Source: an uncultured Amylibacter sp. (lineage in GTDB: Bacteria > Pseudomonadota > Alphaproteobacteria > Rhodobacterales > Rhodobacteraceae). Taken from it: DNA of 64,000 bases. Both the position numbers and the translations under genes were made by a program. Below, piece after piece: positions 28,740 through 62,073 of this stretch; the stretch's first letter is position 1; each line of letters starts with the position of its first letter. Location of the stretch: the NCBI GenBank assembly GCA_959347345.1, contig OY365738.1, positions 2,132,501 through 2,196,500 of the forward strand, given 5' to 3'. Under the pieces are notes generated by a model, which made no database searches, was not told the origin of the DNA, and saw only the letters and a list, made by a program, of their open reading frames with translations.

Positions 28740-28853
28740 TTAGTTGTTAGTTGTTAGTTATTAGTTATTAGTTGTTAGTTGTTAGTTGTTAGTTGTTAGT
28801 TGTTAGTTGTTAGTTGTTAGTTATTAGTTGTTAGTTGTTAGTTGTTAGTTATA
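28740..28853 (+). repeat. Heptanucleotide array A (TTAGTTG/TTAGTTA, about 16 units)
   Basis: An uninterrupted 7-bp tandem array, mainly TTAGTTG with interspersed TTAGTTA, directly upstream of gshA. It forms an inverted pair with array B (29578-29705) around the 182-aa gene. Each unit carries a stop codon on both strands, and because 7 is not a multiple of 3 the array closes all six frames. Confidence 0.97.
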
Positions 28854-29017
28854 GTATTAATTGTGAATTGTGAATACCACTTGATTCAACTTTGAATACC
28901 CCTTTTGCCCTTGCAAAAGAAAATAAAGCGATTAAAGGTACTGAAGCGTATTGGGCGTTAAGTGATGCGTAATACGAATAACTAATTAAACGAATAACTA
29001 ACTAAAAGGATAAAACG

Positions 29018-29566
29018 ATGGATTTACGACTTATGTGCGAGCGAGATTTTAAGCCAGATGAATGGGGTGGCATAGGATTTAGTGATAGAGAAGTTCAAAG
29101 GCATTTAGTACAAAACGCAACAATTGTTGCAGTCTATATCTTGAAAGAGAACGAAGATGAAAAGAAGGCTGGTAAATTTGCAGGCTTTGTTGAACTCTCT
29201 GGTTTAGAAGATAATATATCTGCTTTTGTTACGCCTGAAATTTTAGAACGACATTTTGCAAATCATGATAATGAATGGCTTCATTCTGTTGGAATAAAGC
29301 GGGCTTGGTATATTGCAAAGGATGAATGTGATAATTGGCCAGATGTAGGTGATATTTTTAAAAAAACGTACAACCCTAATGCAGCTATACGCATAGGAAG
29401 TCATACAAAAATTGTAGATGCAGAAGATTTTGTCAATATTGCAGGATTAAAAATTATACCTGTAGAAGTTTATCGCCGTGAATCTGACCTGCCAGATGAA
29501 GAATATGCAACAGAAGACCATGAAACAGCATTAAATCTTTTAATAAGTCGCGGGTTGCTAGTTTAA
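29018..29566 (+). CDS. Unknown 182-residue protein carried between inverted heptad arrays
   Basis: A soluble, acidic protein, not recognised with confidence. ATG 29018 has AAGGA about 10 bases upstream. The middle part (residues 35-130) has alternating strand-like segments (IVAVYILKE, KFAGFVELSG, KRAWYIAKDE) that could be a PUA/EVE-like nucleic-acid-binding fold, but this is a guess from texture only. No signal peptide, membrane helix or catalytic motif is evident. Codon use is AT-rich compared with the flanking gshA and rsmE. It is transcribed opposite to both neighbours and sits alone between arrays A and B, with 163 bp of leader after array A. The arrangement suggests a recently acquired single-gene cassette. 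Confidence 0.7.
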   Translation: MDLRLMCERDFKPDEWGGIGFSDREVQRHLVQNATIVAVYILKENEDEKKAGKFAGFVELSGLEDNISAFVTPEILERHFANHDNEWLHSVGIKRAWYIAKDECDNWPDVGDIFKKTYNPNAAIRIGSHTKIVDAEDFVNIAGLKIIPVEVYRRESDLPDEEYATEDHETALNLLISRGLLV

Positions 29567-29577
29567 TAGCCCAAAGA

Positions 29578-29705
29578 TAACTAATAACTAACAACTAATA
29601 ACCAATAACTAATAACTAATAACTAATAACTAATAACTAACAACTAATAACTAACAACTAACAACTAACAACTAATAACTAATAACTAACAACTAACAAC
29701 TAACA
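29578..29705 (-). repeat. Heptanucleotide array B (AACTAAY units, inverted relative to array A)
   Basis: About 18 units reading AACTAAT/AACTAAC on the plus strand, thus TTAGTTR on the minus strand, opposite to array A. Its right end overlaps the last codons of rsmE. Confidence 0.97.
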
Positions 29706-30441
29706 AAGCCATCGCCGCCACAGCCGCTGTATCGGCGCGGAGGATTCTTTGACCTAAACCCACCCGATAAACGCTTGGGTGCGCCGATAACATATCCTTT
29801 TCACCAGCAGAAAACCCGCCCTCTGGTCCAATCAATATAGCCCACTTGCCCGCAAGCAAACCACTAGCCGAATCACCTTTTGAATTATTGCGCAACCCCG
29901 CCCAACCACTAGCGGATTCACCCGCCATCCGCTCATCACAAAACAAAATCCGTCGCTCTGCATCCCAGCTCGCCAAAACCTCCGATAGCCTCGCCAAATC
30001 ATCCACAACGGACAGGGTAGTCCCACCACATTGCTCTGCCGCTTCCACCACATGGGCGACCAGCCGAGCCCGCGCTATCCGCGCCGTTTGGCTATAATCC
30101 GTGGTAATCGGGCAAATCCTTGCCATCCCCATCTCGGCGGCTTTTTCCACAATAAAATCAGTCCGAGTCTTTTTAATCGGGGCAAATAACAGCCATACAT
30201 CCGCCACCCGACCCTGCGGGGCGGTCTGCTTTTCACAAACCAACTCCCCATTTTTCCGCCCCAACACCGCAATCCGCGCTTGCCATTGCCCGTCCATACC
30301 ATTAAACACAGACAGGCAATCGTCCGCCCCCATCCGCATCACATTACCCAAATAATGGCTGTGAGCGGGCGACAAGGGCAAGCGCAAACCCGCCCCCATC
30401 GGGGCATCAATATAAAGACGGATTTTGGGTGAGTCTGCCAT
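29686..30441 (-). CDS. rsmE: 16S rRNA (uracil-1498-N3)-methyltransferase RsmE
   Basis: A 251-residue SPOUT-class RNA methylase for U1498 of 16S rRNA. An N-terminal PUA-like part is followed by the knotted AdoMet-binding domain: IVEKAAEMGMARI near 100-112, LIGPEGGFSAGEKD near 205-218 and LGQRILRADTAAVAAMALL near 228-246. The final six residues (LLVVSC) and the stop codon are encoded by the heptad array, not by typical RsmE sequence, so the native C-terminus has been replaced at its very end. It is divergent from ubiA with a 30-bp gap. Confidence 0.93.
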   Translation of the reverse strand: MADSPKIRLYIDAPMGAGLRLPLSPAHSHYLGNVMRMGADDCLSVFNGMDGQWQARIAVLGRKNGELVCEKQTAPQGRVADVWLLFAPIKKTRTDFIVEKAAEMGMARICPITTDYSQTARIARARLVAHVVEAAEQCGGTTLSVVDDLARLSEVLASWDAERRILFCDERMAGESASGWAGLRNNSKGDSASGLLAGKWAILIGPEGGFSAGEKDMLSAHPSVYRVGLGQRILRADTAAVAAMALLVVSC

Positions 30442-30471
30442 AACCCGCAGTCTAGGATAAATTGGAAAAAC

Positions 30472-31479
30472 ATGCGAGCCAAATTAAAGAAAAACACGGC
30501 AAATAAGCAAAATGATATTCGGGTTTTTGACGCAACCGCACAAAACTGGGTTGATCGGTTCTGCCCTGTGATTATCCGCCCTTATCTGCGTCTATCACGA
30601 TTAGACCGCCCGATTGGCGCGTGGTTGCTGTTTATTCCGTGTTTATGGGGGGTGTTGGCGGCCAGTTTTACCTCCCCCAATATCGGTAAAACGGTTTGGA
30701 TTATCTTTGCGTGTGCCATTGGGTCAATTTTAATGCGTGGGGCGGGGTGTACTTGGAATGACATCACGGATAGGCAGTTTGATGGGCAAGTCAAACGCAC
30801 CGCGACTCGCCCGCTTCCTGCTGGGCAAATCACTCCGCGAGCCGCGTTTATTTGGATGGTCGCGCAAACCGCGCTGGCTGGGGTGATTTTGCTTACATTT
30901 AACTGGTTTGCCGTTTTGATAGGGGTTGCGTCCTTGCTGCCCGTTTTAATATATCCCTTTGCCAAACGATGGACTTGGTGGCCGCAAGTCTTTCTGGGTG
31001 TGGCGTTTAATTGGGGGATTTTGCTGGCTTGGGCGGCGCAGGCGGGGGCTTTGCCTGTTTCTGCCTTTATTTTATACTTATCGGCGATTTTCTGGACGTT
31101 ATTTTATGACACTATTTATGCGTTTCAGGATACCGAAGATGACGCATTACTGGGCATTAAATCAACCGCACGATTATTCGGCAATCGCGCCAAACCGATG
31201 TTGTTCGTATTCGCCCTTGCCAGCACCGCGTTGCTCAGCCTCGCGGTGTTTTTACTGCCAATCGGCGTAACCCCGCATATCGTCCTTTACGGAGGAATCG
31301 CAGGTTTCGCCACACATTTATCATGGCAACTTTACAGATTAGACATCCGCACCCCCGCCCTTTGCCTAAATTTATTCAAAAAAAACCGCACGGCGGGGCT
31401 GATAGTCGTTTTTGCCCTTTTATTATCGCTGGCTTTGCAATATATCGGGGGGGAGTTCGCTCGCCCCTTTACCCCATAG
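30472..31479 (+). CDS. ubiA: 4-hydroxybenzoate polyprenyltransferase (ubiquinone biosynthesis)
   Basis: A 335-residue integral membrane prenyltransferase. The two Asp-rich Mg-prenyl-diphosphate motifs are present: NDITDRQFDGQVKRTATRPL around residues 98-117 and DTIYAFQDTEDDALLGIKS around 213-231. Eight or nine hydrophobic helices fill the rest. It attaches the polyprenyl tail to 4-hydroxybenzoate in ubiquinone synthesis. The gene starts 30 bp from divergent rsmE and is followed after 10 bp by the OmpA-like gene, suggesting co-transcription. Confidence 0.95.
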   Translation: MRAKLKKNTANKQNDIRVFDATAQNWVDRFCPVIIRPYLRLSRLDRPIGAWLLFIPCLWGVLAASFTSPNIGKTVWIIFACAIGSILMRGAGCTWNDITDRQFDGQVKRTATRPLPAGQITPRAAFIWMVAQTALAGVILLTFNWFAVLIGVASLLPVLIYPFAKRWTWWPQVFLGVAFNWGILLAWAAQAGALPVSAFILYLSAIFWTLFYDTIYAFQDTEDDALLGIKSTARLFGNRAKPMLFVFALASTALLSLAVFLLPIGVTPHIVLYGGIAGFATHLSWQLYRLDIRTPALCLNLFKKNRTAGLIVVFALLLSLALQYIGGEFARPFTP

Positions 31480-31489
31480 GTTTGGCGCA

Positions 31490-33427: not shown

Positions 33428-33429
33428 TA

Positions 33430-33729: not shown

Positions 33730-33746
33730 GGTTTTTTGCGGGGGGT

Positions 33747-34202: not shown

Positions 34203-34205
34203 AAT

Positions 34206-35038: not shown

Positions 35039-35099
35039 GGGGTGGCTCCTTTATCGGGGTTTATGGGGATATAACCTGATTTGGGGGTAAAGTGCAACT

Positions 35100-35131
35100 T
35101 TAGTTGTTAGTTGTTAGTTATTAGTGATTAG
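35100..35131 (+). repeat. Heptanucleotide array C (TTAGTTG/TTAGTGA)
   Basis: Four to five units with 7-bp period upstream of pgsA. It pairs in inverted orientation with array D (35991-36021) across the DUF1643 gene. Confidence 0.9.
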
Positions 35132-35144
35132 TGGGGTAATGATG

Positions 35145-35320
35145 AACGATTTGTTATTAGGGATTGGGGGTTCGTTATGTATCGTTAAGGGCAGAGGTTT
35201 TTTGGTGCCCACCCGCCCACCCCCCCTGCGGGGAGCGGGCGGGTGGGATTATGTTTTTTTGGTTATTTGTGAAAAAGCGTTTGACTTTAGGTGGGTTTTC
35301 GCCCGTCCGTCTAAATAAAA
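35145..35320 (+). repeat. Noncoding repeat block, second dispersed family (copy 1)
   Basis: This block shares with 46398-46590 the runs TTATTAGGGATTGG, GGTTCGTTAT and TTAAGGGCAGAGGTTTTTTG, then a CCCGCCCACCC-rich segment and GTCTAAATAAA. It includes a strong GC hairpin (CCCACCCGCCC ... GGGCGGGTGGG). The similarity extends over noncoding DNA, so short ORFs here are not considered real. Confidence 0.75.
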
Positions 35321-35332
35321 TTTTGAAAAAGA

Positions 35333-35917
35333 TTATCTTCGCCATTCATTAAGAATTAGGTCATCAACATCACCAACATCACGAATAAGTTCAAGAGGTT
35401 GTTTGGGGTTTCCGCTGTCTGCTATCTCAAAACAGTACAACGTCCCTTCGTCCTCGCGTAACGTAACTTCCTCGCGTAACATAGATTCTATATTATTTAA
35501 TCGATCTGGAAACCGATCATCAACACATCTATCACCCCATGCACAAAGGATTGTTGTTTGTGCTGTTCTTGCATATTCTCTAATAATTCTATCATTTTCT
35601 GTGCCAATTTGGTCATTCACAGTTTCATAGCGTCCTGCCTCTCTTTGCACAAAAGCAAAAATGTTTGTCACGTAAATCCCGCCAAACTCATTTTTGGGAA
35701 GTTTTGCAAATTGTTCGCATATTTCGACTGTATCATCATTTATTGCCTCCGTTGCTGTTGAAGAATGCGACATAACAAACATTAGCATAGGGCGGTCTCT
35801 GCGCCAGATTTTTTCTATTAAATAACGGTGTCTCCTGTTAGCGTCATTAGAAAAAATAGCTATAGCGTCCGTGCCATCAGGCCATCTATAAGTGGGGGTT
35901 GTTATTGTATTTGGCAT
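35333..35917 (-). CDS. DUF1643-family protein carried between heptad arrays
   Basis: A 194-residue soluble protein. RHRYLIEKIWRRDRPMLMFV, the S-S-T-A-T stretch (MSHSSTATEAINDDTVEICE) and GGIYVTNIFAFVQRE followed by GTENDRII match the DUF1643 pattern. The family is common on phages and mobile elements; its biochemical role is unknown. DNA is AT-richer than in uvrC and pgsA. The gene lies alone between arrays C and D, in the place where uvrC and pgsA are normally adjacent, and is read in the same direction as both. Confidence 0.8.
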   Translation of the reverse strand: MPNTITTPTYRWPDGTDAIAIFSNDANRRHRYLIEKIWRRDRPMLMFVMSHSSTATEAINDDTVEICEQFAKLPKNEFGGIYVTNIFAFVQREAGRYETVNDQIGTENDRIIREYARTAQTTILCAWGDRCVDDRFPDRLNNIESMLREEVTLREDEGTLYCFEIADSGNPKQPLELIRDVGDVDDLILNEWRR

Positions 35918-35990
35918 TGCTTTACTTGCTTTTAATTATGGTTGGTGTTTAATCATAACAAAAATATAATGCGATTAAAAGCAAAAAAAT

Positions 35991-36021
35991 TAATCACTAA
36001 TCACTAATCACTAATCACTAA
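35991..36021 (-). repeat. Heptanucleotide array D (TAATCAC units)
   Basis: Four to five units of TAATCAC on the plus strand (TTAGTGA on the minus). The uvrC stop codon TAG is the first array unit. Confidence 0.92.
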
Positions 36022-37899: not shown

Positions 37900-38658
37900 C
37901 TAATCATTAATAATATCTGCCGTGCGCCAGCCCAAATGCTGTCCGCCATCAACGCAGATTAACTGCCCCGTCACGGCTTGGGCATCCAATAAATAATCCA
38001 AAGCCGCCAGAATATCGCTTGGCTCTGCCCCGCGTTGCAAAAGCGAGCGTTTGCGTTGTGCATCAAAATGGGCGGTGCTTTGCCGTGCGGCTTTTATCGT
38101 GGAACCAGGGGCAATCGCATTCACCCGTAAATGCGGAGCCAAGGCCTGTGCGCTGGTTTGGGTCAAATGCCATAGGGCGGCTTTGCTGACGCTATAAGTC
38201 ATAAATTCAGGCGTGAGCTTGCGCACACGTTGGTCAATCATATTGATAATCGTGCCCTTAAGTTTCGTTTGTTTGGCAAACGCTTGCGTCAAAATAAACG
38301 GCGCATGCAGGTTAATCCCAATATGATGTTGCCACGATTCGGGCGTGGCGCTCGCCAGACTATCATAATCAAACACCGCCGCGTTATTGATTAAAACATC
38401 CAACGCACCCAAAGCCTCCACCGCACGGGGAATCAGGGTTTGCGTGTCCGCCACATCCGCCAAATCCGCGTGTAAAACCACGCCAGAGCCGCCTGCCTCC
38501 ATAACTTCCGCCAGAACCGCCTGTGCCTCTGCCTTGCTGGTATTGTAATGGATAGCCACCGCAATGCCTCGCCCCGCGCAATGCAGTGCCATAGCCCGCC
38601 CCAGCCGCCTTGCCGCCCCTGTTATCAGTGCCGCGTGATAGTGTGTTTTCTGTGTCAT
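37900..38658 (-). CDS. FolM/PTR1-like pteridine reductase (SDR family)
   Basis: A 252-residue short-chain dehydrogenase. The cofactor motif is TGAARRLG (13-20), with the Arg-Arg pair that marks NADPH-dependent pteridine reductases. NNAAVFD is at 91-97, and the active site has Tyr155 and Lys159 (YSVSK). The usual catalytic serine is replaced by Asp142 (MIDQRV), another PTR1/FolM feature. The likely reaction is reduction of dihydromonapterin or dihydrofolate. The start overlaps the calcium exchanger stop by four bases, and uvrC follows 16 bp later. Confidence 0.8.
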   Translation of the reverse strand: MTQKTHYHAALITGAARRLGRAMALHCAGRGIAVAIHYNTSKAEAQAVLAEVMEAGGSGVVLHADLADVADTQTLIPRAVEALGALDVLINNAAVFDYDSLASATPESWQHHIGINLHAPFILTQAFAKQTKLKGTIINMIDQRVRKLTPEFMTYSVSKAALWHLTQTSAQALAPHLRVNAIAPGSTIKAARQSTAHFDAQRKRSLLQRGAEPSDILAALDYLLDAQAVTGQLICVDGGQHLGWRTADIIND

Positions 38659-39614
38659 ACCGACCCGTATAATAATAAATAGCTATATAAACCATAGCAA
38701 ATCACGAATAATCCCCCGAAAATCCGCCCCATTCGCCAGCCAAACACGATAAACGGCGTGAGTGCCAAGGTTGCCATGCCCATCACCCATAAATCACGGG
38801 TAAGGAAATCGTCGGGCACGGGTAGGGGGGCGACCATCGCGGCTATTCCAGGGATTGCCAGTAGGTTAAACAAATTACTGCCGATAATGTTGCCAATGAC
38901 TATGTCGCCGCGTTTGTGGTAGGCGGCGGATAGGCTGGTTGCCAGTTCGGGTAGGGAGGTGCCGAGGGCTACTAAGGTGAGCCCGATAACGGCGGGGGCG
39001 ATGTTAAATGTCATGGCGATGTTAATCGCGCCGTCAATTAATAGTTTCCCGCCCAGTGGCAAGGCCGCCAATCCTATTAATAAGGCGAATAACGCTTTGG
39101 GTAGGGATAGTGGGGATTTTTTTGGGGTGGGGTTGGTTTGGGGTTGGGGTTTTATTAGTGCCTGTTGCAGGTTTCTGGTTAAAATCGCCCCAAGGCAAAT
39201 CAGCAAAATCACCCCTTGGATGCGTCCAATCGCCCCCATCCAGCATAGGGCGGAAAATACGACCGTCGCGCCCAGCATAATCGCGAAATTACCCCGTGAT
39301 TCGGTTTGTATTTTGGGCGAGAGATCTAGGGTGAAAATCGCCATAGGCAACCCGAGGATTAATAAAACATTGGCGGTGTTTGACCCGACGACATTGCCTA
39401 AGGCTAATTCGGGTGCGCCCGCTAGGACGGCTTGGATAGCCACCAGCAATTCGGGGGCGGAGGTGCCGAAGGCTACCACCGTTAGGCTGATAACAAGGGC
39501 GGAAATACCCAGCCGTTCGGCGAGGGCAACCGTGCCTTTGACAAGGAAGCTGCCGCCGATGACAAGCAGGGCAAGCCCTGATGCGATGAAAAGCCAGTTT
39601 TGGAGGAGGGGCAT
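38655..39614 (-). CDS. CaCA-family calcium/sodium antiporter (YrbG type)
   Basis: A 319-residue membrane protein with about ten helices and the two inverted alpha-repeats of the CaCA family: VAFGTSAPELLVAIQA near 47-62 and VALGTSLPELATSLSA near 214-229, each followed by GNVVGSN or GNIIGSN. It exchanges Ca2+ for Na+ or H+ across the inner membrane. The ATG lies one base from array E, so its leader consists of heptad units without a recognisable ribosome-binding site. Confidence 0.93.
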   Translation of the reverse strand: MPLLQNWLFIASGLALLVIGGSFLVKGTVALAERLGISALVISLTVVAFGTSAPELLVAIQAVLAGAPELALGNVVGSNTANVLLILGLPMAIFTLDLSPKIQTESRGNFAIMLGATVVFSALCWMGAIGRIQGVILLICLGAILTRNLQQALIKPQPQTNPTPKKSPLSLPKALFALLIGLAALPLGGKLLIDGAINIAMTFNIAPAVIGLTLVALGTSLPELATSLSAAYHKRGDIVIGNIIGSNLFNLLAIPGIAAMVAPLPVPDDFLTRDLWVMGMATLALTPFIVFGWRMGRIFGGLFVICYGLYSYLLLYGSV

Positions 39615-39615: not shown

Positions 39616-39675
39616 TTTAGTGATTAGTGATTAGTGATTAGTGGTTAGTGGTTAGTGATTGGTTATTAGTGGATT
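39616..39675 (+). repeat. Heptanucleotide array E (TTAGTGA/TTAGTGG)
   Basis: About eight units, mostly TTAGTGA with TTAGTGG, immediately upstream of the calcium exchanger ATG. Pairs with inverted array F (39921-40012). Confidence 0.93.
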
Positions 39676-39699: not shown

Positions 39700-39905
39700 G
39701 AAGACCAGCTCCACGCGAGGGCGGGGGCTTTTGTGCATATAGAGCTTTTGCTTTCGCAAAAGCCCATACACAAAAGCCTTTGGTTACAAGATGATAGGGT
39801 CTCTATAAATTTGCTATCTGGAATAACAAGATTATAGATTGGATGATTTGCAAAGAATACTTGGGAAGTGGTGATAGGTTCGTTCTAAATTTATTTAGGC
39901 TTTCC
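39700..39905 (+). repeat. Dispersed noncoding repeat, copy A
   Basis: Between arrays E and F. It shares with copies B and C the ordered words GACCAGC, TTTTGTGC, a central hairpin, CAAAAGCC, GGTTACAAGA, AGAATACTTGGGAA and TCTAAATTTATTTAG. The central hairpin differs (here GCTTTTGC/GCAAAAGC), with pairing kept. No ORF is conserved between copies. Confidence 0.9.
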
Positions 39906-39920
39906 CTATTTTCTAAAAAC

Positions 39921-40012
39921 ACTAATAACTAATAACTAACAACTAATAACTAATAACTAATAACTAACAACTAATAACTAACAACTAATAACTAACAACT
40001 AATAACTAACAA
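39921..40012 (-). repeat. Heptanucleotide array F (AACTAAY units)
   Basis: About thirteen AACTAAT/AACTAAC units ending 37 bp before valS. Inverted relative to array E. Confidence 0.97.
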
Positions 40013-40049
40013 CCTTGTTTTTTCATAAAAACCCGTTATAACCCGCCCT

Positions 40050-45560: not shown

Positions 45561-46382
45561 ATGACTTTAAAGACTGAAAAAAATACAGAAAAAAAGACTG
45601 AAAACCGAGCGATTTTGCATATTACGGGCAAGGATGCTTTTGCCTTTCTGCAAGGGCTTATCACCAATGATATGGCGAAAACTGCTTTGAATAATAATGG
45701 GGGGCTGGTCTATACCGCGTTGCTCTCCCCGCAGGGGAAATATCTGTTTGATTTCTTTGTTTTAGAGGATAGGGGGGATTATTTGGGTGCGGGTTATTTG
45801 ATTGATATTGACGCGGAATGCGCCGATGGATTTTGCCAAAGGCTGACTATGTATAAGCTCCGCGCCGAGGTGCAGATTGAAAAAACCATCGGTTGGGTTG
45901 CCCGTGGGCTGGGTGATAAAACGGAGGATGCAACGGTGCATCCCGACCCGCGACATGATTCGCTGGGTTGGCGTAGCTATCATTTTGACGCACCGCCCCC
46001 GTCATCTGATACGGAGTGCGATACGGATTGGAACGCGCTTTATGTGCGGCATTTAATCCCCAAAACGGGGGTGGAATTGATAGCGAATGAAACCTATATT
46101 TTGGAGGCAGGGTTTGAACGTTTGAACGGGGTGGATTTTCAAAAGGGCTGTTATGTTGGGCAAGAGGTCACCGCACGGATGAAGCACAAAACTACTCTGC
46201 GTAAGGGTTTGGCACGGGTGCGGTTGGACGGTGCGGTTCCCATCGGCACGGATATTATCGCGGGCGGTAAGTCCGTCGGCAAAGTGCTGTCCCAAGCCGA
46301 TGGCCACGCCATAGCCCACCTGCGGTTTGAACAGGCAAAGGGAGAGATGGTGGCTGATGGAGTTTTAGTTGTTAGTTATTAG
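45561..46382 (+). CDS. ygfZ: YgfZ-type folate-binding protein (iron-sulfur protein maintenance)
   Basis: About 273 residues from ATG 45561; earlier in-frame starts add a non-conserved segment. The N-terminal part (ILHITGKDAFAFLQGLITND) and the family signature KGCYVGQEVTARMKH near 199-213 place it in the YgfZ/GcvT-like folate-binding family, which supports assembly or repair of certain Fe-S proteins. The last codons (VLVVSY, then TAG) lie inside array G, so the C-terminus has been reshaped by the repeat. Divergent from the glycosyltransferase. Confidence 0.88.
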   Translation: MTLKTEKNTEKKTENRAILHITGKDAFAFLQGLITNDMAKTALNNNGGLVYTALLSPQGKYLFDFFVLEDRGDYLGAGYLIDIDAECADGFCQRLTMYKLRAEVQIEKTIGWVARGLGDKTEDATVHPDPRHDSLGWRSYHFDAPPPSSDTECDTDWNALYVRHLIPKTGVELIANETYILEAGFERLNGVDFQKGCYVGQEVTARMKHKTTLRKGLARVRLDGAVPIGTDIIAGGKSVGKVLSQADGHAIAHLRFEQAKGEMVADGVLVVSY

Positions 46383-46410
46383 TTGTTAGTTGTTAGTGAT
46401 TGGTTATTAG
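46365..46410 (+). repeat. Heptanucleotide array G (TTAGTTG/TTAGTTA/TTAGTGA)
   Basis: Six to seven units that start inside the coding end of ygfZ. Pairs with inverted array H (46790-46822). Confidence 0.93.
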
Positions 46411-46590
46411 GGATTGGAGGTTCGTTATTAGAGGTTAAGGGCAGAGGTTTTTTGTTGCGCCCTCACTTCGTGGCAAGCCACTTCGTTCGGTCGCCCGCCC
46501 GCCCACCCCTCCTGCGGAGAGCTGGACGGTTTTTTTTGGCTGGGGGTTTGGCTCAGCGTCTTGTATATAGTCTAAATAAATTTAGAGCAA
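46398..46590 (+). repeat. Noncoding repeat block, second dispersed family (copy 2)
   Basis: Shares TTATTAGGGATTGG, GGTTCGTTAT and TTAAGGGCAGAGGTTTTTTG with 35145-35320, followed by a Pro-codon-like CCCGCCCGCCCACCC tract. It runs into copy B of the first family. An ORF of 94 codons here is a by-product of the repeat. Confidence 0.75.
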
Positions 46591-46788
46591 ACCTATCACC
46601 AATTCCCAAGTATTCTAAACAAATAATCCACTCTATCGTCTTGTTATTCCAGATAGTAAATTTATAGAATCCCTAGCGTCTTGTAACCAAAGGGCTTTTG
46701 GCATGCTCCCGCGAAGCGGGGGCTACGCACAAAAGACCATGCTGGTCGGCATTCGCGTAGCGATGACGAAGACCCGCAAGGGCTAAAA
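46570..46788 (-). repeat. Dispersed noncoding repeat, copy B (reverse orientation)
   Basis: On the minus strand this reads the same ordered words as copies A and C, including TACGCGAATGCCGACCAGC, the hairpin CCCCGCTTCGCGGG, GGTTACAAGA, AGAATACTTGGGAA and TCTAAATTTATTTAG. Closest to copy C, which shares its long left part. Confidence 0.9.
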
Positions 46789-46789: not shown

Positions 46790-46822
46790 AACTAATAACT
46801 AATAACTAACAACTAACAACTA
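46790..46822 (-). repeat. Heptanucleotide array H (AACTAAY units)
   Basis: Four to five units that end exactly at the stop codon of the inositol-monophosphatase-like gene. Confidence 0.93.
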
Positions 46823-47620
46823 TTAACTATCCAAAACCAACTTACAAAACGGATCAAAAATCTCCCCATTCGCCGCCAGCAAAATCGCGGGAGTTTTATC
46901 CTCTTTATCATCGGCGCTGTCTATCCACTTGCTCATCCCGCCCGCCTCTTGCAACACCATCAAACCAGCCGCCACCTGCACGGGCGTAGCCGTACTCTGC
47001 AAAAATCCGTCAAACCGCCCCATCGCCAGCCACACCAATCCCAAACAAGATGCCTCTAACATCCGCAAACCCCCGCCTCGCGCCGATATCCGTGCTTGCA
47101 TAGCCCGCATCCATTCCCCCTGCGCCACGCCACCATCGCCCGCATCGGTTAAAGCAAACACGCATTGCCCAACATCACGCCGCGCCGATACGCGAATCCT
47201 CTGATCATTTAGCCACGCACCCGCGCCGCGTTCCGCCACATACAACTCATCACTGATAGGATTGTAAATCACCGATGCAACCACCGCCCCGCGATGTTCC
47301 AACGCCACAGAAATCGCCCAAAACGGCAGAGCATGCGTGAAATTAACCACCCCATCCAAGGGCGCGACAATCCACCGCCGCGTAGGATCAACGCCCGCAA
47401 TATTTTGCACACCATCGGTATAACCATAGGTCTCACGGGCTTCAAACAATGCCTCTTGCAGATATTCACCGGTCCGTGCCTTGGCTTTATCGGTGAAATC
47501 GGCCGTGCCTTTGGGGGTGGATTGCAGTTTTTCCACCTCGTTAAAATCACGCAAAAGCCCACGCGCCGCGCGTCTTATCACCTTCATCATTACATTGATA
47601 TTTGCCGACCATTGCGCCAT
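46823..47620 (-). CDS. Inositol monophosphatase-fold protein lacking most metal ligands (probable pseudoenzyme)
   Basis: A 265-residue member of the SuhB/IMPase family by overall alignment: RRWIVAPLDGVVNFTHALP at 81-99, GRFDGFLQ at 201-208 and VAAGLMVLQEAGG at 216-228. The metal-binding residues are largely lost. The usual DPLDGT is APLDGV (Ala86, Asp89 kept), the GEE loop is replaced by DGVQ around 69-72, and the WD of the C-terminal KPWDMAAG motif is VQ (Gln215). It is therefore unlikely to hydrolyse phosphate esters, though the fold seems intact and the frame is uninterrupted. SuhB itself also has a non-catalytic role in rRNA transcription, so a structural role is possible. Lies just upstream of ffs on the opposite strand. 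Confidence 0.85.
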   Translation of the reverse strand: MAQWSANINVMMKVIRRAARGLLRDFNEVEKLQSTPKGTADFTDKAKARTGEYLQEALFEARETYGYTDGVQNIAGVDPTRRWIVAPLDGVVNFTHALPFWAISVALEHRGAVVASVIYNPISDELYVAERGAGAWLNDQRIRVSARRDVGQCVFALTDAGDGGVAQGEWMRAMQARISARGGGLRMLEASCLGLVWLAMGRFDGFLQSTATPVQVAAGLMVLQEAGGMSKWIDSADDKEDKTPAILLAANGEIFDPFCKLVLDS

Positions 47621-47770
47621 AATTTTGCCTTTTTTATTTTTGCGTATATGCTGTTTTTACACAAAACCCAAGGGCAAATATCGCTGTTTTGCCACATAAC
47701 CCGTATTAACCCACATTAACCCACATTAACCCGCTTGCCTTGCCCGCCGATTCCATGTATAGTAAGCAAA

Positions 47771-51501: not shown

Positions 51502-52371
51502 ATGGATATGGAACAGAATAAACAAACGGCAGCCCAGTGGTTTGCCGATTTGCGCGATGATATTTGCACGGCTTTTGAGGATTTGGAGGACGCCCAAATC
51601 ATCGGTGCGTTCAAAGACCGCCCAGCGGGGCGGTTTATCCGCAAAGAAACACGCGGTGCGCAAGGCGGCGGAGGGCAGATGGCGACCTTTAAAAACGGGC
51701 GGTTATTTGAAAAGGTCGGGGTGAATATATCCACCGTTTATGGGCAGTTATCGCCCGCCGCCCGTGCGTTAATGGGTGCGGACAAAGCGGTTGCCTTTGA
51801 TGAAAACGGCGATTTCTGGGCGGCTGGGATTTCTTTGGTAGCCCACATGAACAGCCCCCATTGCCCCGCCGTTCATATGAATACGCGGATGTTTTGCGCG
51901 GCCGATACCTATTGGTTTGGTGGCGGGTGTGATTTGAATCCAATGATTGATAACCCCGCCGATACCGCCCATTTTCACGAGGTATTAAAGACCGCCTGTG
52001 ATGCCTATGATGCCGATTATTATGCCAAGTTTAAGGCTTGGGCGGATTCGTATTTTATGCTGCCCCATCGTGGCGAAGCCCGTGGCGTTGGCGGGATATT
52101 CTTTGATAATTTAAACACGGGCGATTGGGCGTGTGATTTTGCTTTTACCCGCGCGGTTGGCAAGGCGTTTTTATTGGCTTACGCACCTATTATTCATAAA
52201 CGGCGGCTTATGGACTGGACAGAGGCCGAACGCGAAGTTCAATTACACAAACGCGGGCGGTATGTGGAGTTTAATTTATTGTATGATAGAGGCACGCAGT
52301 TCGGTCTGCAATCAGGGCATGATGCCGATGCGGTGTTAATGAGCATGCCGCCATTGGCAATGTGGGGTTAG
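51502..52371 (+). CDS. hemF: Oxygen-dependent coproporphyrinogen III oxidase
   Basis: A 289-residue enzyme of heme synthesis that oxidatively decarboxylates coproporphyrinogen III. Family sequences are present throughout: GRLFEKVGVNIS near 68-79, HMNTRMFCA near 125, WFGGGCDLNP near 138-147, YFMLPHRGEARGVGGIFFD near 185-203 and RGRYVEFNLLYDRGT near 253-267. ATG 51502 is chosen; ATG 51508 and GTG 51493 are also in frame. Its TAG stop interlocks with the TAA stop of the converging beta-galactosidase gene, sharing the bases TTAG. Confidence 0.95.
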   Translation: MDMEQNKQTAAQWFADLRDDICTAFEDLEDAQIIGAFKDRPAGRFIRKETRGAQGGGGQMATFKNGRLFEKVGVNISTVYGQLSPAARALMGADKAVAFDENGDFWAAGISLVAHMNSPHCPAVHMNTRMFCAADTYWFGGGCDLNPMIDNPADTAHFHEVLKTACDAYDADYYAKFKAWADSYFMLPHRGEARGVGGIFFDNLNTGDWACDFAFTRAVGKAFLLAYAPIIHKRRLMDWTEAEREVQLHKRGRYVEFNLLYDRGTQFGLQSGHDADAVLMSMPPLAMWG

Positions 52372-54209
52372 GGTTTATTTATATTTAACACATCACAGGC
52401 TTTTACAGATAGCCCGTTAAAATCCACATCATAATCATTATAATTCACCAGCATATCGCCCCACGCAGTGTGGCGTTTGCGCAAACCCTCTGGCATTTGC
52501 TCGGTCGTAATACCCGCACGGGTCGCCATATCCGTTAAGACTCGAACCAATGCGGTATCATCCAGCCACGCACCAATATAAAACCGCTTATCCTGCACAC
52601 CATCTTGTCCAACAACAACCGCCGCGCCGTCAACAGTTGCCTCTATCACTGCTCCATTTACCGCCAAATCCTCCATCCATTTTTTCACAAACCCGCCGTT
52701 TGCCAAGGCAATCTGCACATTCGGGCGTAGGGTTGCGACACGCAAAACCTGCACATCCAGCCCGTTAATATCAGGGGCGTTTGTGTTTGTCATCATCCCC
52801 TCCGCCTTACTGGCGAACCGCGGACCATAGACGATTGCAGCATCGCTGGCATTCAGAGCCTGTGTGAAATCCGCCTCTGCCTGCATTAACGCGGGGATAA
52901 TAATCAACCGCCGCCCTTTGATTTCATCAATCTGTGCGGGGATGATATCAACCGAAAGCCCCAAACGGCGCAACGCCCGATAGGTATCAAAAACCACGCG
53001 GAAATAATCAAAATCGCGTCCTTGGGGCTGAACATCCCACGCCCATTGTGATGGATAATCAAACACCAACGCGACATCGGCACGGGGGGTTACGCCCGCC
53101 TCCCCCAATTCTGCCAGCTCTTGCCCGACCCGCGTTACCTCTGCCAAACCCTCCGCGTCCGAGCCATCACTGCGCAATAATCCCGCATGCATTTGTTCTT
53201 GGGCAAACCCCGCCTGTCGCCAGCGAAAGAAGGATACGACTTCTGCGCCATGGGCAAAAGCCTCCCACGTCCATAATCGCACCATACCCGCCTTTGGAAT
53301 AGGATTCCACGCAGCCCAATTCACCGGGCCGGGCTGTTGTTCCATCACCCACCATCGCCCGCGCCCCACGGCTCGGTATAAATCGTGGTGGAAGGCTTGG
53401 AAATCGGGGTCGCCTTGGGTGTAGAAACGGGCTTTCCAATCGTCATTATCCTCTAACGCCTCTTCCAAAAAGCCCAAAGGATAACTGTCCCAACTGGCGA
53501 TATCCAAATCCGCCCCGACTTCATAATGGTCAAAATCCGTGACTCGTCCCATGTAATTATGAATAAGCGGGGCGTTGGAATGGGCGCGAATCGCGTCGGC
53601 TTGGGCGCGGTTGAAGGCAACGACTTGGGCGGAAGAATATCGGCCGAAATCCCACGCGTGGGCGGGGTTAGGCTCGGTTACACAGATATTCGGCAGGTCT
53701 ATCTGGGTGAAATCATCGTATTCCATTGACCAAAACACATTGCCCCATGCGCGATTTAACGCATCTATGGATTGGTATTTTTGCGCCAGCCAATCGCAAA
53801 AGCCCGCCTTTGCTGCGGGGGAATAGGATTGCGTCGTGTTATGACAGCCATATTCGTTATCAATTTGCCATGCGGTAATATGCGGATTTTTGCCATATCG
53901 AGTTGCCAGAACGCGGGCAATACGGGCGGCTTGGTCGCGATAGGGTAGGTGGGAAAAGCAATAATGACGGCGCGAGCCGAATCCTCGCGTTTGTCCATCG
54001 CGCCCTTGGGCGAGCATATCGGGGTATTTATCCACCATCCACCGAGGCGGAGTGGCAGTGGGGGTGCCAAGGACTATGTTTAATCCCGCCTGTCCTAGGG
54101 TGTCAATCGCGCTATCCAGCCAATCCCAAGTGAAAGTGTCAGGGCTGGGTTCAATCCGCGACCACGCGAATTCGCCAATCCGCACGACAGAGATGTTTGC
54201 CTTGCGCAT
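52368..54209 (-). CDS. GH42 beta-galactosidase whose native start is missing
   Basis: A GH42 enzyme hydrolysing terminal beta-D-galactosides. ISVVRIGEFAWSRIEP, the acid/base region AWQIDNEYGC (Glu within NEYG, near residue 119) and, later, WWVMEQQPGPVNWA with the nucleophile glutamate near 282 are conserved, followed by the trimerisation domain and a C-terminal beta domain. The listed start at 54209 is the first possible ATG, but the sequence before it in the same frame still encodes the family N-terminus LGVCYYPEHWTPSDW (about residues 1-20 of the native protein). Reading further back to the in-frame TAA at 54369-54371, I find no ATG, GTG or TTG; the frame enters array I instead. The barrel's first strand is thus probably not translated, and the gene may be inactive. 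Confidence 0.85.
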   Translation of the reverse strand: MRKANISVVRIGEFAWSRIEPSPDTFTWDWLDSAIDTLGQAGLNIVLGTPTATPPRWMVDKYPDMLAQGRDGQTRGFGSRRHYCFSHLPYRDQAARIARVLATRYGKNPHITAWQIDNEYGCHNTTQSYSPAAKAGFCDWLAQKYQSIDALNRAWGNVFWSMEYDDFTQIDLPNICVTEPNPAHAWDFGRYSSAQVVAFNRAQADAIRAHSNAPLIHNYMGRVTDFDHYEVGADLDIASWDSYPLGFLEEALEDNDDWKARFYTQGDPDFQAFHHDLYRAVGRGRWWVMEQQPGPVNWAAWNPIPKAGMVRLWTWEAFAHGAEVVSFFRWRQAGFAQEQMHAGLLRSDGSDAEGLAEVTRVGQELAELGEAGVTPRADVALVFDYPSQWAWDVQPQGRDFDYFRVVFDTYRALRRLGLSVDIIPAQIDEIKGRRLIIIPALMQAEADFTQALNASDAAIVYGPRFASKAEGMMTNTNAPDINGLDVQVLRVATLRPNVQIALANGGFVKKWMEDLAVNGAVIEATVDGAAVVVGQDGVQDKRFYIGAWLDDTALVRVLTDMATRAGITTEQMPEGLRKRHTAWGDMLVNYNDYDVDFNGLSVKACDVLNINKP

Positions 54210-54272
54210 ACGCGCGGCATCCTGCGCCCAATCGCTGGGAGTCCAATGTTCGGGGTAGTAGCAAACGCCAAG

Positions 54273-54366
54273 CGAATGGTGAATTGTGAATGGTGAATTG
54301 TGAATGATTAAGCCTGTTGTTATGATTAATGGTGAATTGTGAATGGTGAATTGTGAATTGCGAATG
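54273..54366 (+). repeat. Heptanucleotide array I (GTGAATT/GTGAATG)
   Basis: Two runs of GTGAATT/GTGAATG units separated by a short unique stretch (about 54306-54328). The right run ends 3 bp from the DUF4209 stop; the left run touches the beta-galactosidase coding sequence. Inverted relative to array J. Confidence 0.92.
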
Positions 54367-54369
54367 ATT

Positions 54370-56142
54370 TTAGTTCTGTGGTTTTGGGTCTAGTGTCTGC
54401 GATTTTATAAACGGAATAAAAATAATATGCAAGGTTAGCCAATAAAGATAAACCATTTGAGGGGCGAACAACTCGGCATCATTCATAAGACCATGTGCAA
54501 GGTCGTTTCGCAGATTTCCACCCTCTTTTTTAATGAGTAACCCCTGTAAATCAAAAACCAAATCTTTGCCAAAAATATCTTCTAATTCTTTGGATTCAAG
54601 TAATTCTTTAAAACTCCCCTGTTCTTGAGTACCATCATTAATTTGCTTTGATGTTTCTATTCCGTGATTGGTAAGCACATAACGGATAGAGTTTTCTATT
54701 TGAGGGATTAGGATATGAGCCGCAGAAAGAAAATCGCCATGAAATCCATGAAAAAGACCGTATGCGTAGGTGTTTATCCGATCTGGCGGGATGAATGGGC
54801 AATTTTCAAGTAAATCCCTCCAATCAAAAAGAGAAATATGATGTTCTAATTTGATTTTTTGTAGGACTGGAATTAAAATATTTTCAACTAAAAAATTTCT
54901 ATGAAATAATGCTATATCATGATGCATTTTGGATTCTATGGGAGCGTCTGTTGGAATCTCGGTAATAAGATGTCCGTTGTGGTTATGAAGCTGGTCACCA
55001 AATAAAGAAGAGAAAATATTTTTTTCCTTAGCCTCTTCTGTTTCTTTTTTAATATCTTCAAAATTAGGTGACGATATTATAAATGCAAATTTATAGATTG
55101 CGTCCCACGCATTAATTTCAGAAACATGTTGCGTGTATTTTTTGGTTATGGTTATGTCAGGGGCAGGAAGAGGAATAGAGAGTAGTCGCATTTCATTTTT
55201 GATGTTAGACTGCACTTCAACCAAGCGGGCATATATTTCATCACATCTTTTATTTTTGCTAGAGATAGCACGATATGCCTTTACAGCAAGTTGCAGGAAA
55301 TGACTAATACGTATATAAGATGGGTTTTGCGTAACTTGTATAGTATCGGCTAATAAAACATAGGTTTCAGCAGCATTAATTTGACATTGAATAGCTTTAT
55401 TGTTGTTCTTTGCTATTTTATATAGATCGGCAGCCAAACTCCAAACGTGCTGTGCGCTATCATAATTGCTTTCTGTTTGATATGTGGTGGCGATGGCTTC
55501 CAGTATTTTGACATGCTTTGGGTTATTTTGACGATGTGTCTCATGTAATAACTCAACCAAGTATACTATTAAATGATGTGGGGTGCTCGTATTTTCAATA
55601 TACGCAGATATTTTTTTTGGTGCATCCAGTTTTGTTGGATTTTGTTTATTAGAAAGTCTTATATTATCAAAAATGCAAAGTGCTCTGGCTAATCTTTCCC
55701 ACGTATCATGCCAGCTTTCCCCTAAAAGAGTATCAGCGGAAATAAGATATGCCTCTATCGCATTTTTGGCGTGTTCTTGGGCTTTCCCATGCTTTAATAC
55801 CCATAGCGTATCTGCCACACGCGCCTTTAATTCGTTATCTTTTATTTCAGGTAAAACCTGCTGTAAGAAATCACGTTCTTCTGGGGTAAGGTCGCTTGGT
55901 ATAGGGCTTCTACGCCCTTGCATCATAATATATTCTTTAAGAGGTTCATTGGGTGAATATGGCACTAAATAATAAGAAACAACTGCATCAAAGATATCAA
56001 CAACGGCTCTTGCTTCTTGAGACATTTGTTTTTGTGACAGGTTTCGGGTAAATTCCCAATATTCAGAGCAATTCTTTTTTTCGCATGCATCAATTAACGG
56101 GGCGATATAAAATTGATAATCATCAATACTCATTTTAACCAT
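54370..56142 (-). CDS. DUF4209-family protein with HEPN-like RNDLAH motif, cassette gene
   Basis: About 590 residues from ATG 56142 (MVKMSIDD), which has AAGG eight bases upstream; an ATG 19 codons earlier lies in the terminator region and is less likely. The protein is soluble, with helical repeat-like texture in residues 130-330. Near residues 545-556 is GNLRNDLAHGLM, an Arg-x4-His arrangement as in HEPN ribonucleases, followed by a hydrophobic helix. I recognise the C-terminal part as DUF4209. HEPN proteins often act in abortive infection or RNA-based defence; that role is inference here. DNA is AT-rich compared with the galactoside genes around it. It is bounded by arrays I and J and preceded by its own terminator. 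Confidence 0.75.
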   Translation of the reverse strand: MVKMSIDDYQFYIAPLIDACEKKNCSEYWEFTRNLSQKQMSQEARAVVDIFDAVVSYYLVPYSPNEPLKEYIMMQGRRSPIPSDLTPEERDFLQQVLPEIKDNELKARVADTLWVLKHGKAQEHAKNAIEAYLISADTLLGESWHDTWERLARALCIFDNIRLSNKQNPTKLDAPKKISAYIENTSTPHHLIVYLVELLHETHRQNNPKHVKILEAIATTYQTESNYDSAQHVWSLAADLYKIAKNNNKAIQCQINAAETYVLLADTIQVTQNPSYIRISHFLQLAVKAYRAISSKNKRCDEIYARLVEVQSNIKNEMRLLSIPLPAPDITITKKYTQHVSEINAWDAIYKFAFIISSPNFEDIKKETEEAKEKNIFSSLFGDQLHNHNGHLITEIPTDAPIESKMHHDIALFHRNFLVENILIPVLQKIKLEHHISLFDWRDLLENCPFIPPDRINTYAYGLFHGFHGDFLSAAHILIPQIENSIRYVLTNHGIETSKQINDGTQEQGSFKELLESKELEDIFGKDLVFDLQGLLIKKEGGNLRNDLAHGLMNDAELFAPQMVYLYWLTLHIIFIPFIKSQTLDPKPQN

Positions 56143-56189
56143 GATAATTGCCTTATTCTGTGATTCTTTAGTGATAGCTTTTTCATGCA

Positions 56190-56217
56190 AAAAAAGCAAG
56201 CAACCTTGCGGTTGCTT
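56190..56217 (-). terminator. Rho-independent terminator at the entry of the DUF4209 cassette
   Basis: On the minus strand an 8-bp stem AAGCAACC/GGTTGCTT with loop GCAA is followed by a T-run of seven (56190-56195). It would stop transcription coming from the galactonate genes before it reaches the DUF4209 gene and the beta-galactosidase. Confidence 0.75.
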
Positions 56218-56233
56218 ACTTTATTACTAAAAA

Positions 56234-56291
56234 ATTCATAATTCATAATTCATAATTCATAATTCATAATTCACCATTCACAATTCACCAC
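56234..56291 (-). repeat. Heptanucleotide array J (ATAATTC units, ending ACCATTC/ACAATTC)
   Basis: About six ATAATTC units, then ACCATTCACAATTCACCA. The minus-strand reading GGTGAATTGTGA supplies the last two codons and the stop of the SMP-30 gene. Confidence 0.93.
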
Positions 56292-58654: not shown

Positions 58655-58697
58655 GGGGATGTTTTAATGGATTTGAGTTCTGTTGTAAAGATTAGTC

Positions 58698-58743
58698 CTT
58701 AATAACTAATAACTAACAACTAACAACTAATAACTAACAACTA
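58698..58743 (-). repeat. Heptanucleotide array K (AACTAAY units)
   Basis: Six to seven AACTAAT/AACTAAC units between dgoK and the SDR gene. The SDR stop codon TAG is the first array unit. This array has no inverted partner and no inserted gene. Confidence 0.95.
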
Positions 58744-59505
58744 AACCGCCCCACCATCGACAATCAGCATCTGCCCCGTCATCATCTTTGACGCATCGGA
58801 TGCCAGAAACAAAGTCGGTCCTACCATATCATCAGCCATTAAATGCTCGGGCAAACATTGGCGATCAAGGTGCTTTGCCAAACCCTCTGGCGTTGCCCAT
58901 TTGTCCATCTGCTTTTGCGTTAAAACCCAGCCAGGCACCAGCGTATTCACGCGGATATTATCAACCCCCAGCTCCCGTGCCAAAACACGGGTCATGCCAG
59001 CTATTCCCGCGTTCGCGGTTGTATAGGCGGCAAAGCCCGCTTGCCCCATAAGATAGCTAATCGAAGAATAATTGATAATCGCACCGCCACCCCGTTTGCG
59101 CATCTTTGGTGCCACCCATTGGGATGTGAAAAAATACGGACGCAGATTAACCGCGTGGTTTTTATCCCAATCATCTACGGTCGTTTCAGCAATCGTATGG
59201 CGCACATCATTGCCCGCATTATTGACCAGAACATCTATCGCACCATTGACCTCTTCGGCGGTTTGCATTGCGGTTTGCAATGCGTTAATATCGCTGATAT
59301 CGCAGGGAATAAAGGTCGGCGTGGTAAAATCCCGCCCCATTTGTTTGACAAAATCACTGGCATCAGAGCGTTGAATAAAGCTAACCTTTGCCCCTTGCCC
59401 CAGAAATCCAGCGGTTAAGGCAGCACCTATGCCAGAGCCTCCGCCAGTGATAAAAACGTGCTTATCCTTTAGGTCGTGAAAGGTTGCGTGTGGTTTGTGG
59501 GTCAT
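58741..59505 (-). CDS. SDR-family sugar dehydrogenase (likely galactose 1-dehydrogenase), atypical active site
   Basis: A 254-residue short-chain dehydrogenase. TGGGSGIG (20-27) binds NAD(P), NNAG is at 95-98, and the active-site serine region YSSIS is at 146-150. Tyr161 is present in YTTANAG, but position 165, normally the catalytic lysine of YxxxK, is Asn (codon AAC). PGWVLTQKQMD and the C-terminal VDGGAV fit SDRs that oxidise aldoses at C1, such as galactose, arabinose or fucose. Context (alpha-galactosidase directly upstream, lactonase and KDGal enzymes downstream) points to galactose oxidation. Strong ribosome site AGGAGG lies before the ATG. The stop codon is inside array K. Confidence 0.78.
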   Translation of the reverse strand: MTHKPHATFHDLKDKHVFITGGGSGIGAALTAGFLGQGAKVSFIQRSDASDFVKQMGRDFTTPTFIPCDISDINALQTAMQTAEEVNGAIDVLVNNAGNDVRHTIAETTVDDWDKNHAVNLRPYFFTSQWVAPKMRKRGGGAIINYSSISYLMGQAGFAAYTTANAGIAGMTRVLARELGVDNIRVNTLVPGWVLTQKQMDKWATPEGLAKHLDRQCLPEHLMADDMVGPTLFLASDASKMMTGQMLIVDGGAV

Positions 59506-59506
59506 T

Positions 59507-61618: not shown

Positions 61619-61653
61619 AGGGGTGTGATAGGGGGTTTTGTGGCGATTGTAAA

Positions 61654-61693
61654 TAGTTGTTAGTTATTAGTTGTTAGTTATTAGTTATTAGTG
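61654..61693 (+). repeat. Heptanucleotide array L (TTAGTTG/TTAGTTA)
   Basis: Five to six units starting 36 bp upstream of the alpha-galactosidase ATG. It opens the repeat block that ends with array M. Confidence 0.93.
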
Positions 61694-61696
61694 ATG

Positions 61697-61945
61697 CCCT
61701 GCGGGTCTTCGTCATCGCTACGCGAATGCCGACCAGCTCCACGCGAGTGGCGGGGTCTTTTGTGCGTAGCCCCCACTTCGTGGAGGCATGCCAAAAGCCC
61801 TTGGGTTACAAGATGATAATGATTCTATAAAATTACTAGCAGGATATACAAGAGGATAGATTGGATTATTTGTTTAGAATACTTGGGAAGTAGCGATGGG
61901 TTTTTTCTAAATTTATTTAGGCTTTGCCTATAAACTAGGACAGGC
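61697..61945 (+). repeat. Dispersed noncoding repeat, copy C
   Basis: Same ordered words as copies A and B: CTACGCGAATGCCGACCAGC, a central hairpin CCCCCACTTCGTGGAGG, GTTACAAGATGATA, AGAATACTTGGGAA and TCTAAATTTATTTAGGC. The hairpin is changed on both arms compared with copy B. Confidence 0.92.
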
Positions 61946-61948
61946 TTG

Positions 61949-61996
61949 GGTGCGCCCGCCCCGAAGAGGCTTTAGCCTCAAGGGTGCGGGCGCACC
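61949..61996. repeat. Large nested hairpin after repeat copy C
   Basis: GGTGCGCCCGC (61949-61959) pairs perfectly with GCGGGCGCACC (61986-61996). Inside is a second perfect stem GAGGC/GCCTC with loop TTTA (61966-61979). Not followed by a T-run, so unlikely to be a simple terminator. Confidence 0.8.
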
Positions 61997-62043
61997 CCGT
62001 GGGGGCATCGCAAAGCGATGACGCAGACCCGAAGGGCTAAAAA

Positions 62044-62073
62044 TTAATCGTTAATCGTTAATCGTTAATCGTT
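62044..62073 (+). repeat. Heptanucleotide array M (TTAATCG)
   Basis: Four units of TTAATCG, a variant of the TTAGTTR/TTAGTGA unit, at the far end of the repeat block. Confidence 0.9.

What the first reader, a model, noticed from the sequence alone, without database searches (positions are those of the whole stretch)
28740..62073. Heptanucleotide arrays at gene junctions, arranged as inverted pairs that bracket inserted DNA
Thirteen arrays with a strict 7-bp period lie between core genes: 28740-28853, 29578-29705, 35100-35131, 35991-36021, 39616-39675, 39921-40012, 46365-46410, 46790-46822, 54273-54366, 56234-56291, 58698-58743, 61654-61693 and 62044-62073. Ten form five clearly inverted pairs around either a single accessory gene (182-aa unknown, DUF1643, DUF4209) or a noncoding repeat block. 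In most cases an end of the pair is exactly at a host stop codon (rsmE, uvrC, ygfZ, the IMPase-like gene, the SMP-30 gene, the SDR gene). In rsmE/gshA and uvrC/pgsA the inserts separate genes that are usually adjacent in related bacteria. No transposase or integrase lies in any insert. I infer an array-bounded cassette system, perhaps mobilised in trans by an unknown enzyme or by recombination between arrays, that places accessory genes at gene ends without breaking host genes.
Basis: partly seen in the sequence, partly recalled or inferred. Interest (0 to 1): 0.85.

Follow-up and report, generated by a model that had tools for sequence, protein, structure and literature searches.

The report
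Paired seven-base repeat arrays bracketing genes
In this stretch of an uncultured bacterium's genome every long gap between genes is flanked by two mirror-image runs of a seven-base repeat, a known but unexplained kind of repeat; here the pairs enclose single genes that relatives lack there, and the repeat wording seems to change from strain to strain at the same spot.

Summary
The 13 period-7 arrays are real: six convergent pairs, not five, plus one solo array. On my gene list all six junctions of 435 bp or more (of 26) carry a pair. The host is Amylibacter-like. TTAGTKR arrays are absent from sampled relatives (0 of 12, 0 of 394, 0 of 390), and uvrC-pgsA and ygfZ-IMPase are usually close there, so pairs mark insertions. 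Corrections: stop codons lie inside the arrays; RsmE's last eight or nine residues are replaced and GH42 lost its start codon, so genes are clipped; rsmE-gshA is not normally adjacent. Cargo genes are low-GC; one matches a candidate defence family. New: eight RsmE and eight YgfZ close relatives have array-like tails at the same codon, but the unit differs by strain and locus (inferred from proteins). The pairing itself is published for Xanthomonas heptamers (PMC4692102). I read this as a new variant of that class, with inserts exchanged by recombination between arrays; a mobilising enzyme is neither shown nor excluded.

The parts
28740..28850 (+). E1 left array, TTAGTTR x ~16, running inward into AATTGTG units; 16 bp from the gshA start
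29018..29566 (+). E1 cargo: 182-aa protein (u182), no Pfam; predicted fold resembles PUA/ASCH/EVE/YTH domains, moderate support; GC 0.361
29577..29706 (-). E1 right array, TTAGTTR on the - strand; contains the rsmE stop (29686) and encodes its last residues
35100..35133 (+). E2 left array TTAGTTR/TTAGTGR, degenerating inward
35148..35239 (+). E2 left subterminal module, shared with E4 left (46398-46458 and 46493-46525)
35333..35917 (-). E2 cargo: DUF1643 protein (194 aa), GC 0.40
35991..36021 (-). E2 right array TTAGTGA; contains the uvrC stop (36018)
39617..39667 (+). E3 left array TTAGTGR, 2 bp from the ATG of the gene at 38655-39614
39703..39909 (+). E3 noncoding core, repeated in E4 and E7
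39921..40013 (-). E3 right array TTAGTTR, upstream of valS
46365..46397 (+). E4 left array TTAGTTR; contains the ygfZ stop (46382)
46569..46781 (-). E4 noncoding core, inverted relative to E3 and E7
46790..46830 (-). E4 right array TTAGTTR; contains the IMPase stop (46823)
54274..54365 (+). E5 left array GAATTGT/GAATGGT (interrupted); sits where the GH42 start codon should be
54370..56199 (-). E5 cargo: DUF7380+DUF4209 protein, PADLOC PDC-S39; GC 0.358
56233..56288 (-). E5 right array (TGAATTR-type); contains the SMP-30 stop (56278)
58700..58744 (-). E6 solo array TTAGTTR; contains the SDR stop (58741)
61654..61692 (+). E7 left array TTAGTTR
61697..62043 (+). E7 noncoding core with inner inverted repeat; the stretch 61650-62080 folds as single-stranded DNA far better than shuffles (z -9.0)
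62044..62073 (-). E7 right array TTAACGA, about 90 bp from the stop of 62165-63394

Best explanation
The arrays belong to the known class of intergenic heptameric tandem repeats that occur as convergent pairs with the C-poor strand reading inward. Shown: each pair encloses DNA (a repeated noncoding core, or one low-GC accessory gene), and at the two junctions compared cleanly with relatives (uvrC-pgsA, ygfZ-IMPase) most relatives have little or nothing there; array edges run into neighbouring coding sequence and supply its stop codon. Shown on proteins only: at two junctions an array-like tail stays at the same codon in all close relatives that could be read while its coding changes. Inferred: the arrays are rewritten by replication slippage, unequal exchange and conversion between arrays. 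The inverted arrangement survives because two arrays in the same direction would delete what lies between them and leave a solo array such as E6. Two arrays with copies elsewhere give homology on both sides, so any array-flanked segment can replace another by ordinary homologous recombination. Array pairs would thus be passive landing pads for cassette exchange, and no dedicated enzyme is needed once a first insert is in place.
For: Six convergent pairs, in all six junctions of 435 bp or more. Mosaic inserts: E4 shares its left module with E2, and its core and right module with E7. Cargo-gene GC 0.358-0.400 against a mean of 0.502 (sd 0.044) for 37 other genes, five of which, all in the island at 4190-14902, are themselves at 0.379-0.436. 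RsmE relatives P0015-P0022 end in LLVVSC (3 of 8), LLTIND (4 of 8) or VLTISD (1 of 8) at the same codon; YgfZ: VSY 3, TIND 2, TISD 3 of 8 readable of 9. Under a strict 7-bp period LVVSC* decodes only to TTAGTTG and LTIND* only to TTAACGA; 112 of 200,000 random ends fit any such period. Two proteins listed on contigs of the same length (443,088) show different endings at the two loci (P0020, P0137), so change appears local. A TTAACGA array is also present in the window (62044-62073).
Against: In E3 and E7 the two arrays of a pair carry different units, so pairs are not homogenised together. Strict decoding fails for LVVSY* and LTISD*, which need two unit variants. Rehm 2015 found repeat sites in Xanthomonas more stable than other intergenic sites, which argues against arrays as insertion hot spots in general. 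Two of three cores have host-like GC. In 21 of 63 loci uvrC-pgsA is longer than 150 bp without such arrays, so this junction accepts DNA without them. The survivorship argument is untested: seven junctions only.
Confidence: 0.45

Rival explanations
1. The pairs are the ends of non-autonomous transposable elements (MITE or mobile insertion cassette) whose terminal inverted repeats are heptamer arrays, moved in trans by a transposase encoded elsewhere in the genome.
For: Repeated noncoding core at three places, both orientations; inner inverted repeat of E7, z -9.0 against shuffles; single passenger genes without transposase; empty sites at genus/family distance.
Against: No target-site duplication seen: longest shared word in the outer 15-bp flanks is 2-4 bases for six pairs, random mean 3.48. 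Arrays of a pair can differ in unit (E3, E7). In the masked self-comparison E1 and E5 share nothing with other inserts and E2 shares only a left module. No match of the E7 core in plasmids or the E4 core in phages. All readable close relatives keep an array-like tail at rsmE and ygfZ.
Confidence: 0.25
2. The arrays are boundary elements acting at the RNA or DNA level (3'-end structure, terminator, insulator or protein-binding site), kept by selection at gene ends; the cargo is incidental because genes can be gained only in the few long gaps.
For: C-poor strand is sense downstream of stops and antisense upstream of starts, like the rule reported for Xanthomonas and Nostoc; arrays pair in the folded RNA of E4, z -4.8; position fixed while coding drifts in 8 of 8 and 8 of 8 readable relatives.
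Against: E3 lies between two start codons; the arrays clip RsmE and GH42, odd for a tuned element; 19 of 26 junctions have no array; unit sequence and length vary.
Confidence: 0.2
3. Assembly artefact: arrays or inserts come from misjoined long reads or mixed strains.
Against: The same junction peptides recur on other contigs; gene order around the arrays is the usual one at uvrC-rsmE.
Confidence: 0.03

Closest known systems
GGGAATC / GGGGA(C/T)T heptamer repeats of Xanthomonas and Nostoc (Rehm et al. 2015, PMC4692102; abstract, passages, and sections 10, 13, 14 and 16 read)
   Same: Period 7, intergenic, degenerate units, convergent inverted pairs (70 cases in Xcc, 75 in Xac), coding strand at and over stop codons, non-coding strand upstream of starts, positions mostly kept and length and sequence varying between relatives.
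   Different: Unit here is TTAGTTR and kin, without G-runs, so no G-quadruplex; pairs here enclose single accessory genes or a repeated core; unit type seems to change between strains at one codon. Rehm generally found no association with mobile elements and, in the sections I read, describes no cargo.
TAACTGA heptamer repeats of Beggiatoaceae, Cyanobacteria, Bacteroidetes (MacGregor 2015, PMC4679880; abstract, passages, sections 12 and 24 read)
   Same: Heptamer arrays, similar unit, stops in all frames in one orientation, some overlap with gene ends, patchy occurrence, a suggested role in gene rearrangement.
   Different: In the Beggiatoaceae genome mostly direct repeats just upstream of start codons, 169 sets and one indirect repeat; no bracketed cassettes described in what I read.
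STRR heptanucleotides of cyanobacteria (recalled; Calothrix heptanucleotides are mentioned in a passage of PMC4692102)
   Same: Tandem heptanucleotides.
   Different: Details of pairing not seen by me.
MITEs and mobile insertion cassettes (seen only in a search listing; otherwise recalled)
   Same: Short repeated elements, or single passenger genes between inverted repeats, without transposase.
   Different: No target duplication seen, no fixed terminal repeat, no related transposase known here.

Membership tests
Heptameric intergenic tandem repeats (Rehm/MacGregor class) | Tandem arrays of a 7-bp unit, over-represented against other periods | tested here: met
Heptameric intergenic tandem repeats (Rehm/MacGregor class) | Convergent pairs on opposite strands (Xanthomonas) | tested here: met
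   12 of 13 arrays form six pairs
Heptameric intergenic tandem repeats (Rehm/MacGregor class) | Coding strand at or over stop codons, non-coding strand upstream of starts | tested here: met
   6 of 6 abutting 3' ends have the stop inside an array whose C-poor strand is sense; the seventh 3' end facing an array (62165) is about 90 bp away
Heptameric intergenic tandem repeats (Rehm/MacGregor class) | G-rich unit able to form G-quadruplexes (Xanthomonas/Nostoc subtype only) | tested here: not met
   the units TTAGTTR, TTAGTGR, TTAACGA and GAATTGT have no run of three G. Same class in geometry, not the G4 subtype.
MITE | Repeated short noncoding element with terminal inverted repeats | tested here: inconclusive
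   core shared by three of six inserts; inner inverted repeat seen in E7, other inserts not checked in the same way
MITE | Target-site duplication | tested here: not met
   six pairs; array turnover could have erased one
Mobile insertion cassette | Passenger gene between the ends of a known insertion sequence | not tested
   whole genome not held
Integron gene cassette | attC site and integrase | not tested
   no attC scan was run; no integrase hit among the three cargo proteins

The most novel reading that the evidence does not exclude
Convergent heptamer-array pairs form a genome-wide set of landing pads through which single accessory genes, probably defence genes, are swapped between strains and loci; the array units are replaced as blocks during exchange, so that the unit at a junction is a trace of the last cassette that passed, and an unidentified enzyme acting on 7-bp periodic DNA may drive it.
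Probability: 0.15. Interest if true: 0.85.

Novelty: new variant of a known kind. Interest (0 to 1): 0.5.

Why it matters
Heptamer arrays have been reported in unrelated bacteria without an established function or mechanism. This genome links them to gene gain (single low-GC genes inside the pairs) and gives a handle on their turnover: the same gene end seems to carry different units in closely related strains. That makes two open questions testable with long-read genomes: whether arrays change by slippage or are replaced as blocks, and whether array pairs guide cassette exchange.

Tried and rejected
Looked for TTAGTKR or TTAGTTR arrays (exact patterns; other units were not searched) in whole genomes: 0 of 12 nearest, 0 of 394 of the family, 0 of 390 of the order, 1 of 398 of the phylum, where the backward control also matched 1; the three large sets are samples and overlap in part. 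A scan for any period-7 array in the 80 relatives' loci found one short array, in L076. Looked for the E7 core in plasmids and the E4 core in phages: none; for a core motif, u182 and the DUF4209 protein in viral contigs: none confirmed. Rfam at gathering scores: only a tRNA and the SRP RNA. Arrays in the DNA held of 20 viral contigs and one genome locus, all chosen for having an array: 43 arrays, 6 opposed neighbour pairs within 2 kb (4 convergent, 2 divergent), so paired geometry is not the rule there. Target-site duplications: none seen. Considered and dropped: a transposon splitting one array (would give same-direction halves); stop-codon targeting (arrays carry stops and the gaps are short); G-quadruplexes (no G-runs). 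Positional clustering alone was not significant. SMP-30 ends could not be compared (the four relatives printed end differently) and SDR was not compared. Six paper searches (10 to 25 rows shown of each) listed no report that I recognised as heptamer pairs enclosing genes; only two papers were opened.
Full report
Observation. Tandem Repeats Finder and a separate lag-7 scan recover the 13 arrays. At the same threshold period 7 gives 14 segments (one array is interrupted), period 10 one, and periods 3-6, 8, 9 and 11-13 none. The first 28.7 kb have no array. By the C-poor strand, arrays run + - + - + - + - + - (-) + -: six convergent pairs and one solo array at 58700 (the last array, TTAACGA, has equal G and C and was assigned by its unit). 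In 27353-63394 my gene list gives 26 junctions if cargo is left out; the six of 435 bp or more all carry a pair, the solo array lies in one of 86 bp, and the other 19 are at most 244 bp, the longest of these holding the SRP RNA.

Host. UvrC matches Amylibacter and other Rhodobacteraceae at up to 67%; no genome is held for the window. The order exchanger-SDR-uvrC-pgsA-moaE-ompA-like-ubiA-rsmE-gshA is shared, whole or in part, with many of the 80 loci fetched. TTAGTKR arrays: 0 of 12, 0 of 394 and 0 of 390 genomes; any period-7 array in the 80 loci: one short array.

Insertions. uvrC to pgsA is at most 150 bp in 42 of 63 loci (21 of 63 longer, up to 2,949 bp) and 979 bp here. ygfZ and the IMPase-like gene are convergent with alignment ends at most 62 bp apart in 8 of the 9 genomes that have both on one contig (the ninth, G011, 864 bp; of the other three of 12, G005 has the best matches on different contigs and G006 and G007 gave no YgfZ match) and 440 bp apart here. 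rsmE to gshA is different: none of 32 loci has a gap of 300 bp or less, and in the six loci inspected an ORF of 137 to 235 aa lies between. In the window u182 stands in that place. u182 and DUF1643 have no hit in the 80 loci at 1e-8.

Array edges. All six host genes whose 3' end touches an array have their stop codon inside it. UvrC and the IMPase-like protein stop within a few residues of where relatives do; YgfZ ends in array-coded residues at about the usual length; RsmE ends AVAAMALLVVSC where the 14 relatives printed continue to WQ...LGDW, so eight or nine residues are replaced by five. SMP-30 relatives (four) end too differently to compare; SDR was not compared. At the GH42 gene the frame opens upstream of the first ATG (54209) into LGVCYYPEHW, which aligns to residue 2 or 3 of the best solved GH42 enzymes, and the array begins where the start codon should be. 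So the edges clip genes; short gaps and array-borne stops explain the apparent preference for stop codons.

Strains. RsmE has eight relatives at 89-93% and then none above 59% among those listed. Their ends are LLVVSC (P0018, P0020, P0022), LLTIND (P0015, P0016, P0017, P0019) and VLTISD (P0021); P0023 at 59% ends in WQ..LGDW. YgfZ has nine at 88-96%, eight with a readable end: VSY (P0138, P0139, P0140), TIND (P0137, P0143), TISD (P0141, P0142, P0144); P0145 diverges before the end. A strict period-7 reading gives TTAGTTG alone for LVVSC* and TTAACGA alone for LTIND*, and nothing for LVVSY* and LTISD*, which need two unit variants, so their decoding is my reading. The DNA was not seen, and the proteins are representatives of 90% clusters. 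TTAGTTG to TTAACGA takes four changes per unit, which suggests replacement of blocks rather than single mutations (inference). P0020 and P0137 are listed on contigs of 443,088 bp and have different endings, so change seems to be per locus; P0022 and P0011 (a u182 relative, 44%, 47%) are both listed with 5,425-bp contigs, which would put a divergent cargo beside an 89% RsmE. Both rest on equal contig lengths only.

Array structure. Inner edges keep some period (mean lag-7 match 0.365) against 0.272 outside and 0.244 at random, mainly in left arrays: old units inside, fresh units at the host side.

Literature. Rehm 2015 (PMC4692102) reports convergent heptamer pairs, the same strand rule at stops and starts, and positions mostly kept with varying length and sequence, and more genomic stability there than at control sites; cargo is not described in the sections I read. 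MacGregor 2015 (PMC4679880) reports TAACTGA arrays with stops in all frames and suggests a role in rearrangement in some species. So the array kind and pairing are known; the enclosed accessory genes and unit switching are what this case adds.

Verdict. A new variant of a known kind. The most economical mechanism is passive exchange by recombination between array pairs, with trans-mobilisation and an RNA/DNA boundary role as live rivals.

Noticed in passing
window 1256-15029: A defence island beside a tRNA gene: SNF2 helicase (DrmD-like), type III methyltransferase and restriction subunits, ZorA and ZorE of Zorya type II; no heptamer arrays in it.
   Followed up: partly
window 52368-54275: GH42 beta-galactosidase frame has lost its start codon to the E5 array; the first in-frame ATG is residue 23 of the open frame.
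   Followed up: yes
contig lengths: The contig length listed for u182 (4,737,489 bp) is also listed for a YgfZ only 89% identical to the window's; it is about twice that of a related 2,370,456-bp contig, so it may be two strains joined.
   Followed up: no
L093 (viral contig): Eleven heptamer arrays of several unit sequences within 9 kb, two close convergent pairs 48 and 58 bp apart.
   Followed up: no
window 47692-47732: A separate 10-bp tandem repeat (CCACATTAAC, 4.2 copies) just upstream of the SRP RNA gene.
   Followed up: no
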